A stretch of DNA of 64,000 bases, taken from NCBI RefSeq assembly GCF_900109175.1, contig NZ_FNZE01000001.1:62001-126000 (forward strand). Direction: 5' to 3'. This DNA comes from Pseudomonas linyingensis (GTDB lineage Bacteria > Pseudomonadota > Gammaproteobacteria > Pseudomonadales > Pseudomonadaceae). The translations under genes and the position numbers were made by a program. Numbering within the stretch: the stretch's first letter is position 1; the number at the start of each line of letters is the position of its first letter. The notes under the pieces are model-generated. The model had not been told where the DNA came from and searched no databases. It worked only from the letters and a program-made list of their open reading frames with translations. Below, piece after piece: positions 27,624-28,936 of this stretch.

Positions 27624-27800
27624 TCAGGCGGCGAGCTTTTCCGGACCTGGAAAGGAAGAAGCCTCCCGGTCGGTGGACCGGAAGGCTTCGCGGCGGTAGC
27701 TGCCTTTGCCTTTGGCGGGCTTTTCCCGGCGACAGCGGAACAGCGGTTGCGCTATCAGGGATTTGACCTTGTTCGGGCCGGGGTTGCGTTGCTTGGCCAT
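27624..27800 (-). CDS. arfA: Alternative ribosome-rescue factor ArfA
   Basis: A 58-residue protein starting 'MAKQRNPGPNKVKSLIAQPL' with the ArfA core 'FRCRR…KPAKGKGSYRRE'. ArfA recruits release factor 2 to ribosomes stalled on non-stop mRNA, backing up trans-translation. A strong hairpin (27658-27689) lies inside the coding region at codons ~38-48; in other bacteria such a hairpin causes RNase III cleavage or termination, so the gene gives a truncated, active protein only when tmRNA is overwhelmed. The start has a GAGGAG ribosome site. It lies 98 bases downstream of holA on the same strand. Confidence 0.85.
   Translation of the reverse strand: MAKQRNPGPNKVKSLIAQPLFRCRREKPAKGKGSYRREAFRSTDREASSFPGPEKLAA
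27658..27689 (-). terminator. Hairpin inside arfA that would generate a non-stop mRNA
   Basis: Arms GAAGCCT+CCGGTC and GACCGG+AGGCTTC pair through 13 bp with a single T·G mismatch step and a 4-nt loop; on the minus strand a pyrimidine-rich TTCCTTTCC follows. It may act as an RNase III target or intrinsic terminator. Confidence 0.8.
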
Positions 27801-27898
27801 GACCACTCCTCGTGGGTCGCCGGCGAGCGTGCCGGCGCGCGCATCATCGGCCGCGCTACGCAAGTTGTCCAGTGGCGCTGTGCAAAAAGTGAGCAGGT

Positions 27899-28936
27899 CT
27901 ACTCGGTGGGCAGGTTGAGGCGCGTGCCGGCGATCTGCAGGGTCAACTGCGCCAGCGCATTCCACACGTTGCCGGGTGCCTGGCCCTTGATCTGCGCGTC
28001 GATCAGCTGGGCATCGCGCAGCAGCTGGTTCCAGCGGCTCGCCGGGTGACGCTGTACGGCGCGGCCGACCAGGGCCTGGCGCTTGCCGAAGATCGGCGGC
28101 TTGGCCTGGGCGATCAGTCGCTCCAGCGGCTGGCCCTGGGCGTGCTGCTGGGCGAGGGTGGCGAGCAGGCGCAGCTCGCGGGCCAGTCCCCAGAGGATCA
28201 CCGGCGCCTCCACGCCCTCGCCGCGCAAGCCTTCGAGCATGCGCAGGGCGTGGGCTGCATCGCCGGCCAGCGCCGCGTCGAGCAGGCCGAACAGGTCGAA
28301 GCGCGCGCTGTCGGCGACGCTGGCCTGCACGGTGGCCGCATCCAGCTGGTTGCCCTCGACCAGCAGCTTGAGCTTCTCGATCTCCTGCACCGCGGCCAGC
28401 AGGTTGCCCTCGATGCGCGCCACCAGCAGGTCGATGGCCTCCATGCTGGCGGACAGCCCGGCCTGGGCCAGGCGCTGGCGAATCCACTGCGGCAGCTGCG
28501 CGGCGTCCACCGGCCAGATCTGCACGAACTGGCAGTTGTCGCCGTCGATCAGCGCCTTGGCCCACTTGGTCTTCTGCGTCTTGCCGTCGAGCCGCGGCAG
28601 GCTGAGCAGCAGCACGGTGTCCTCGGCCGGACGCGCCAGGTAGTCGAGCAGCGCGCGGGTGCCGTCGTCGCCGGGCTTGCCGGCGGGGATGCGCAGCTCC
28701 AGCAGGCGCTTGTCGGCGAACAGCGACAGGCTGGCGCCGGCCTCGCGCAGCAGGTTCCAGTCGAAATTGGCGTCGACGTGGAAGACCTGGCGCTCGCTGA
28801 ACTCGCGGGCGCGGCAGGCGGCGCGGATGGCGTCGCAGGCTTCCTGGCACAGCAGCGGGTCATCGCCGCTGACCACGTACAGCGGGGCGAGCGGACCCTG
28901 CAGGTGCTTGGCCAGTTGGGCGGGGGTGAGTTTCAT
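27899..28936 (-). CDS. holA: DNA polymerase III subunit delta
   Basis: A 345-residue clamp-loader subunit that opens the beta sliding clamp. The N-terminal AAA+-like domain starts 'MKLTPAQLAKHLQGPLAPLY' and contains 'VVSGDDPLLCQEACDAIR' (the degenerate P-loop region of HolA). The length matches E. coli (343). Its position after lptE–leuS is the conserved order. The start codon lies just after a hairpin in the lptE–holA gap. Confidence 0.95.
   Translation of the reverse strand: MKLTPAQLAKHLQGPLAPLYVVSGDDPLLCQEACDAIRAACRAREFSERQVFHVDANFDWNLLREAGASLSLFADKRLLELRIPAGKPGDDGTRALLDYLARPAEDTVLLLSLPRLDGKTQKTKWAKALIDGDNCQFVQIWPVDAAQLPQWIRQRLAQAGLSASMEAIDLLVARIEGNLLAAVQEIEKLKLLVEGNQLDAATVQASVADSARFDLFGLLDAALAGDAAHALRMLEGLRGEGVEAPVILWGLARELRLLATLAQQHAQGQPLERLIAQAKPPIFGKRQALVGRAVQRHPASRWNQLLRDAQLIDAQIKGQAPGNVWNALAQLTLQIAGTRLNLPTE

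What the first reader, a model, noticed from the sequence alone, without database searches (positions are those of the whole stretch)
27624..27800. arfA with a built-in hairpin that would make it express only as a non-stop mRNA
The 58-codon gene carries the ArfA core (KGKGSYRRE) and a 13-bp hairpin at codons ~38-48, within the coding region rather than after it. In E. coli, ArfA is made from an mRNA truncated by RNase III or terminated at such a hairpin; the tmRNA system destroys the tagged product unless it fails. The layout here predicts the same fail-safe circuit. The gene is very short after the hairpin (10 codons), shorter than the E. coli tail, so the C-terminal extension may have a different role or be vestigial.
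Basis: partly seen in the sequence, partly recalled or inferred. Interest (0 to 1): 0.72.

Follow-up and report, generated by a model that had tools for sequence, protein, structure and literature searches.

The report
ArfA gene with hairpin and degron
This is the known ribosome-rescue gene arfA, whose message seems built to end before its stop codon; the few codons after that point, which looked like a possible leftover, are under strong selection to end in Ala-Ala, so the gene may carry its own copy of the cell's destruction tag.

Summary
27800-27624 (minus strand) is a 58-codon ArfA gene (Pfam PF03889) with a 14-bp hairpin inside the coding region (27689-27658, codons 38-48). The non-stop/tmRNA fail-safe is a well-supported prediction but known: shown in E. 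coli, proposed for P. aeruginosa PA3990. A conserved U-tract codon (Phe TTT 105 of 105 against 17% background) makes an intrinsic terminator the likelier route. The idea that the tail may be vestigial is contradicted. Of 169 distinct Pseudomonadaceae loci, 159 end in Ala-Ala, 151 in [LIVM]AA (own-genome ORFs: 8 and 1 of 298). On a holA tree the last two codons show 14 changes at codon positions 1-2 against 70 at position 3, while the hairpin's two Ala codons show 3 and 0 changes in all. In a second family 27 of 28 end AA; in an Enterobacterales-like order 2 of 30. This genome's tmRNA tag is ANDDNYALAA. Most likely, read-through ArfA carries a gene-encoded ssrA-like degron, so both outcomes at the hairpin lead to degradation while trans-translation works. 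Degradation and transcript ends are untested; among 12 genes with lengthened tails only 7 keep AA.

The parts
27624..27800 (-). arfA, 58 codons, alternative ribosome-rescue factor A
   Evidence: ORF; Pfam PF03889 E 2.4e-10; the only ArfA match in the genome at E <= 0.001
27684..27722 (-). codons 27-39, PAKGKGSYRREAF: ArfA core motif KGKGSYRR and the start of the hairpin's 5' arm
   Evidence: translation; KGKGSY exact in all 178 Pseudomonadaceae loci examined, with third-position changes only among 146 tree tips
27658..27689 (-). 14-bp hairpin inside codons 38-48
   Evidence: arms pair in relatives, 1734 of 1760 cells standard against a shuffle mean of 1683, for 160 of 169 loci
27649..27657 (-). 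U-tract TTCCTTTCC after the stem; predicted 3' end of terminated (non-stop) arfA mRNA about here, at codon 50 (TTT, 27653-27651)
   Evidence: terminator scan; T-ending codon at the matching place in relatives far above codon usage; the end itself is inferred
27636..27650 (-). 5 codons (PGPEK) by which the tail is longer than usual
   Evidence: 6 of 7 distinct same-genus genes are 5 residues longer than the seventh, which has the usual FLAA end
27627..27635 (-). codons for C-terminal Leu-Ala-Ala, ssrA-like degron (predicted)
   Evidence: terminal AA in 159 of 169 distinct Pseudomonadaceae loci; 14 changes at codon positions 1-2 against 70 at position 3 in the last two codons; the tmRNA tag of this genome ends ALAA
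27843..27871 (-). sigma-70-like promoter match upstream of arfA (TGGACA-17-GATGAT)
   Evidence: consensus scan, 1 found in 1501 bases, 0.1 expected; not tested further
27899..28936 (-). holA (DNA polymerase III delta), gene upstream of arfA
   Evidence: Pfam; a holA match lies within 1.5 kb upstream of arfA in 156 of 178 Pseudomonadaceae loci

Best explanation
arfA is a two-exit, one-degron switch. Most transcripts stop at the hairpin plus U-tract (or are cut there) and so lack a stop codon. The ribosome that reaches the end is taken by tmRNA-SmpB, which adds ANDDNYALAA, and ArfA is destroyed. Transcripts that read through encode a few further codons, about three in most of the relatives and eight here, which end in Leu-Ala-Ala, so the normally terminated protein carries an ssrA-like C-terminus written in the gene. 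ArfA would be stable only when the ribosome runs off the truncated message AND trans-translation fails to tag it. Shown here: the gene, the hairpin and its conservation, the conserved U-tract, protein-level selection on the terminal Ala-Ala, and the presence of tmRNA, SmpB, ClpX, RNase III and ArfB. Inferred: termination at the hairpin in the cell, tagging, and recognition of the encoded tail by ClpXP.
For: Terminal AA in 159 of 169 distinct Pseudomonadaceae loci and [LIVM]AA in 151, against 8 and 1 of 298 own-genome ORFs. Parsimony on a holA tree of 146 tips: changes at codon positions 1,2,3 are 4,3,45 (penultimate Ala) and 3,4,25 (last Ala); the hairpin's Ala codons give 0,0,0 (GCT) and 1,1,1 (GCC). 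Control: holA's own last two codons give 22,22,40 and 30,22,49; the holA mean codon is 6.5,3.4,25.4. AA is found at the terminus at 15 to 35 residues from KGKGSY. U-tract codon: Phe TTT 105 of 105 (holA background 16.7%), Leu CTT 32 of 34 (CTT is 3.7% of CTN), Val GTT 7 of 7 (6.1%), of 152 genes counted. Own tmRNA tag ANDDNYALAA; ClpX reads the LAA of that tag (review passages). In another family of the order 27 of 28 end AA. In E. coli full-length ArfA is unstable and two C-terminal Asp stabilise it (review passage).
Against: No degradation, transcript-end or protein data were available. Ten of 169 loci lack AA. Of 12 distinct genes with tails longer than 20 residues, the window's included, only 7 end AA, against 152 of 157 with shorter tails. 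Within the genus one gene ends LTS and two distinct ones end RAA, which may be weaker degrons. Only 2 of 30 genes of the Enterobacterales-like order end AA, and the one other class-level hit, L120, ends VGD, so it is not a general ArfA feature. Folding energy is borderline or unremarkable against synonymous randomisation in many members. The window gene's own U-tract is interrupted. In the second family the AA codons often lie inside the hairpin arm, so RNA constraint may contribute there.
Confidence: 0.7

Rival explanations
1. Ordinary E. coli-type arfA: RNase III cuts the hairpin, and the tail is only a generally hydrophobic, unstable C-terminus without a specific degron.
For: This is the published E. 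coli mechanism; RNase III is encoded; the P. aeruginosa tail has been described as hydrophobic.
Against: Selection is concentrated on the last two residues, which are alanines: 5 and 4 amino-acid changes there against 21, 27 and 25 at the three residues before. The P. aeruginosa hairpin was noted to be shorter than known RNase III substrates, and a U-tract is conserved.
Confidence: 0.15
2. The conserved tail is part of ArfA's active surface, for example in the mRNA channel, rather than a degron.
For: ArfA's C-terminal region lies in the mRNA entry channel (review passage); a full-length product would then need a defined tail. Most AA-ending tails have the same length (18 residues after KGKGSY in 115 of 166 AA-ending loci before removal of duplicates), and genes with lengthened tails lose AA more often.
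Against: AA also occurs at 15 to 35 residues from the core; truncated ArfA is fully active in E. coli; the Enterobacterales-like tails differ.
Confidence: 0.07
3. The encoded tail is a degron, but for another protease (ClpAP, Lon, FtsH or Prc) rather than ClpXP. This overlaps with the best explanation in all but the last step.
For: The E. coli ssrA tag is also read, less well, by ClpAP, Lon, FtsH and Prc (review passage); the residue before AA is not always Leu (Q, N, R, C, K in other clades).
Against: In Pseudomonadaceae it is [LIVM] in 151 of 159 AA ends, as expected of the ClpX-read LAA.
Confidence: 0.2
4. The AA ending is shared descent or chance without function.
For: Sequences are related and sampling is uneven; 80 of the 178 loci came from one similarity search with the window protein.
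Against: All four Ala codons are used and position 3 changed at least 70 times on the tree with only 14 changes at positions 1-2; holA's last two codons show no such bias; the loci found by profile alone give 85 of 93.
Confidence: 0.03

Closest known systems
E. coli ArfA (YhdL), arfA non-stop mRNA under tmRNA control
   Same: Protein family, KGKGSY core, hairpin in the 3' coding region, predicted non-stop mRNA, unstable full-length product as a second lock
   Different: E. coli has a stem with some mismatches that RNase III cuts, with termination there also seen, and a hydrophobic tail; here a 14-bp stem without bulges, a conserved U-tract in relatives and a C-terminal LAA
P. aeruginosa ArfA PA3990
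   Same: Same family; published as having a predicted hairpin and a hydrophobic C-terminus, with a regulation like E. coli's suggested
   Different: The passages read do not mention the ssrA-like Ala-Ala end or selection on it; the tail here is about five codons longer than the commonest in Pseudomonadaceae
Bacillus subtilis BrfA
   Same: A rescue factor whose gene holds an intrinsic terminator before the stop codon, giving tmRNA-controlled non-stop mRNA
   Different: Another protein; its terminator-less GFP-BrfA-FLAG versions accumulated equally with and without SmpB, and no encoded degron is described in the passages read
ssrA (tmRNA) tag, ANDDNYALAA in this genome
   Same: C-terminal L-A-A, the part read by ClpX
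   Different: Here it is encoded in arfA itself, not added by tmRNA, and lacks the ANDDNY part that SspB binds

Membership tests
ArfA (PF03889) | Profile match over the curated cut-off | tested here: met
   40.2 bits against 25.5
ArfA (PF03889) | KGKGSY core | tested here: met
   Present; exact in all 178 Pseudomonadaceae loci examined
ArfA (PF03889) | RF2-dependent release of non-stop ribosomes | not testable with these tools
   Needs biochemistry; RF2 was not searched for
tmRNA-regulated arfA non-stop mRNA | Conserved hairpin in the 3' coding region | tested here: met
tmRNA-regulated arfA non-stop mRNA | tmRNA and SmpB present | tested here: met
tmRNA-regulated arfA non-stop mRNA | mRNA 3' ends at the hairpin; ArfA rises without ssrA | not testable with these tools
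   Needs Term-seq and immunoblots
Intrinsic terminator | G+C-rich stem followed by a U-tract | tested here: met
   14 bp, 5 U of 9 in the window gene; U-tract codon T-ending in nearly all of 152 relatives counted
RNase III substrate | Long double-stranded stem that is cleaved | tested here: inconclusive
   14 bp only; RNase III encoded; P. aeruginosa hairpin reported as shorter than known substrates
ssrA-type ClpXP degron | C-terminal Leu-Ala-Ala | tested here: met
   Ends KLAA; selection on the final AA in the family
ssrA-type ClpXP degron | ClpX-dependent degradation | not testable with these tools
   ClpX is encoded; turnover not measured

The most novel reading that the evidence does not exclude
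In Pseudomonadales the arfA gene encodes its own copy of the end of the tmRNA degradation tag just past the point where its mRNA is truncated, so tagged and read-through ArfA converge on the same proteolytic signal and only untagged run-off product survives. The Ala-Ala end recurs with a different hairpin layout, with the stop codon within or beside a long stem, in a second family.
Probability: 0.65. Interest if true: 0.6.

Novelty: new variant of a known kind. Interest (0 to 1): 0.45.

Why it matters
It turns an apparently vestigial tail into a testable second lock on a backup ribosome-rescue system, and suggests that the discarded end of a non-stop gene is translated often enough to be under strong selection. 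It would link ArfA turnover to ClpXP capacity as well as to tmRNA capacity, so saturation of either could switch on the backup pathway.

Tried and rejected
Rejected: tail as vestige. Rejected: Rfam element (one match at E 0.66, far under the family's gathering score and on the other strand). Rejected: a second ArfA in the genome (one match at E <= 0.001). Not decisive: folding energy against synonymous-codon randomisation (25 runs, of which two are the window gene; from 6 to 353 of 500 random versions as stable). In one search the best stem found for L089 is not the conserved hairpin. Parser misses: 9 of 169 loci in the pair count (8 of one genus, g18, plus L243). Two of 28 tails of the second family and L120 were missed at first and read later; I had looked at the wrong place in L120. 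L253, under the profile's cut-off, gave no tail. The 80 loci are the best of 132. Of 158 profile-positive Pseudomonadaceae genomes, 98 were fetched, chosen from the listed rows to spread over genera, so the weakest matches are missing.

The two key primary papers (Schaub 2012, Garza-Sanchez 2011) are not held, so I cannot say that they do not mention the Ala-Ala end. Recalled, from no call: Schaub 2012 found hairpins in most ArfA genes and an intrinsic terminator in Neisseria. Searches on ArfA with ClpXP and full-length, with LAA and degron, on ClpXP and LAA in P. aeruginosa, on an ssrA-like degron, and on PA3990 listed no paper that describes this by its title or the start of its abstract (where 12 of 14 were listed, 43, 44). 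Of the papers cited I read found passages only, none in full.

Full report
The gene. The minus-strand ORF 27800-27624 encodes 58 residues with the core KGKGSYRRE and matches Pfam ArfA over its cut-off. It is the only ArfA match in the genome at E <= 0.001. Upstream lie holA, lptE and leuS, downstream a family-3 solute-binding protein; a holA match lies within 1.5 kb upstream of arfA in 156 of 178 Pseudomonadaceae loci. The closest named gene found is from Pseudomonas (Geopseudomonas) sagittaria, 88% identical, so the window is probably from that genus; the species is not identified.

The hairpin. It is 14 pairs (one G-U) with a 4-nt loop, 27689-27658, codons 38-48, and the 66-nt stretch is more stable than all 200 dinucleotide shuffles. 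In the 241-nt context it is kept but the total energy is unremarkable (z -1.66), and against synonymous randomisation it is borderline (27 and 32 of 500 in two runs). Comparative evidence is better. In 166 of 169 distinct Pseudomonadaceae loci the best stem in the folded stretch has 9-17 pairs (in L089 it is not the conserved one). With arms placed by the protein motif in 160 of 169 loci, 1734 of 1760 pair cells are standard, against a mean of 1683 and a maximum of 1692 in 500 column shuffles; exchanges such as G-C to A-T, C-G to T-A and A-T to G-C or C-G occur. The shuffles ignore relatedness. On a holA tree of 146 tips the Ala codon GCT of the 3' arm never changes and the Ala codon GCC of the 5' arm changes once at each position. 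Other stem codons do change: the third codon of the 5' arm (TTC/TCC) 1,6,1, the W/R codon 11,3,1, and the last S/F codon, which leaves the stem at its third base, 0,9,16.

How the message ends. Just after the stem, the codon that carries the U-tract nearly always ends in T: Phe TTT 105 of 105, Leu CTT 32 of 34, Val GTT 7 of 7, among 152 AA-ending genes with tails of 15-20 residues, against holA backgrounds of 16.7% (TTT of Phe), 3.7% (CTT of CTN) and 6.1% (GTT of GTN). This is selection on the RNA and fits an intrinsic terminator. The window gene, with its longer tail, is not in that count; its codon there is TTT (codon 50), but its U-tract is interrupted (TTCCTTTCC). RNase III is encoded and cannot be excluded; the P. 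aeruginosa hairpin was described as shorter than known RNase III substrates (review passage).

The tail. The predicted truncation point lies just before the final codons. In most relatives about three codons, xAA, then remain; here eight (PGPEKLAA). Of 178 loci, 169 are distinct; 159 end AA, 151 of them [LIVM]AA; 10 do not. Restricted to the distinct loci found by the profile rather than by similarity to the window gene, it is 85 of 93 over 15 genera. Those come from 98 of the 158 profile-positive Pseudomonadaceae genomes, chosen from the listed rows to spread over genera. In 298 ORFs of 150 or more codons from 464 kb of this genome, 8 end AA and 1 ends [LIVM]AA. Fitch counts at codon positions 1,2,3 are 4,3,45 for the penultimate and 3,4,25 for the last Ala; holA's own last two codons give 22,22,40 (last) and 30,22,49, and the holA mean codon 6.5,3.4,25.4. 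The terminal Ala-Ala is therefore conserved as protein, with free synonymous change, just after a hairpin conserved as RNA. AA ends occur at 15 to 35 residues from the core, as expected for a signal read from the free C-terminus, but most tails have the same length, and of 12 distinct genes with tails over 20 residues only 7 end AA, against 152 of 157 with shorter tails. Lengthening thus often costs the signal, which weakens this part of the argument.

Breadth. In another family of the same order (unnamed, f3), 28 of 101 genomes have ArfA, and 27 of the 28 end AA, most often QAA; the exception ends QVA. There the layout differs: in the 26 folds printed a long stem spans the end of the ORF, with the stop codon within or beside it, so part of the AA conservation could be RNA constraint; some tails differ altogether (..HNAA..MRAA..ALAA) and still end AA. 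Two genes of a third family of the order end KAA and KTA. Of 30 genes from 48 profile-positive genomes of the order centred on G448, Enterobacterales-like by their tails and the E. coli control, 2 end AA and none [LIVM]AA. One more class-level hit, L120, ends VGD.

Mechanism. The genome has tmRNA with tag ANDDNYALAA, SmpB, ClpX and ArfB. ClpX reads the LAA of this tag (passages of PMC13159725, and PMC9382460). In E. coli, full-length ArfA is unstable and two terminal aspartates stabilise it (passage of PMC3989581). The simplest reading is that the Pseudomonadales gene encodes an ssrA-like end, so read-through ArfA is destroyed much as tagged ArfA is, and only untagged run-off ArfA persists. 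Conservation of a tail that truncated messages do not encode implies that full-length protein is made often enough to matter. Degradation and transcript ends are not tested here.

What is known. The tmRNA-controlled non-stop arfA is established (reviews, passages read: PMC8012679, PMC3989581, PMC3989591) and proposed for P. aeruginosa (PMC13159725, passages). BrfA in Bacillus uses an internal terminator (PMC6881298, passages). The Ala-Ala end is not described in the passages I read, and the searches listed no paper on it by title or start of abstract; the two primary papers are not held. I rate it a new variant of a known kind.

Noticed in passing
L248-L250, L258-L280 (second family): In the folds printed, a long stem spans the end of the arfA ORF with the stop codon within or beside it, and its 5' arm encodes the tail (often ..RQAA); a different layout from Pseudomonadaceae that could suit RNase III.
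   Followed up: partly
Pseudomonadaceae genomes: 40 of 198 genomes have no ArfA match. The two genera without any match in the tally (17 of 19 have one) appear to be g5 and g7, to judge from the 20 listed of 40.
   Followed up: no
L101 and L211 (genus g12): ArfA with different tails (..FFIA..AFAA) and almost no hairpin in the folded stretch (3-4 pairs), though motif-placed arms still pair in part.
   Followed up: no
L243: The 5' arm reads RRRSTRNW where the near relative L199 has RREATRNW, as from a locally compensated frameshift, and the predicted hairpin is lost.
   Followed up: no
L001-L003, L005, L007, L008, L017, L089, L097, L111, L213, L246: Twelve distinct tails longer than 20 residues; 7 still end AA (3 LAA, 4 RAA), 5 do not (LTS, RYA, CCA, RCA, RAC).
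   Followed up: partly
L131 (G000:C26:6131-7303): A second match to the ClpX model over the curated cut-off, besides clpX itself.
   Followed up: no
window 27843-27871: Sigma-70-like promoter match between holA and arfA, which would give arfA its own transcript.
   Followed up: no
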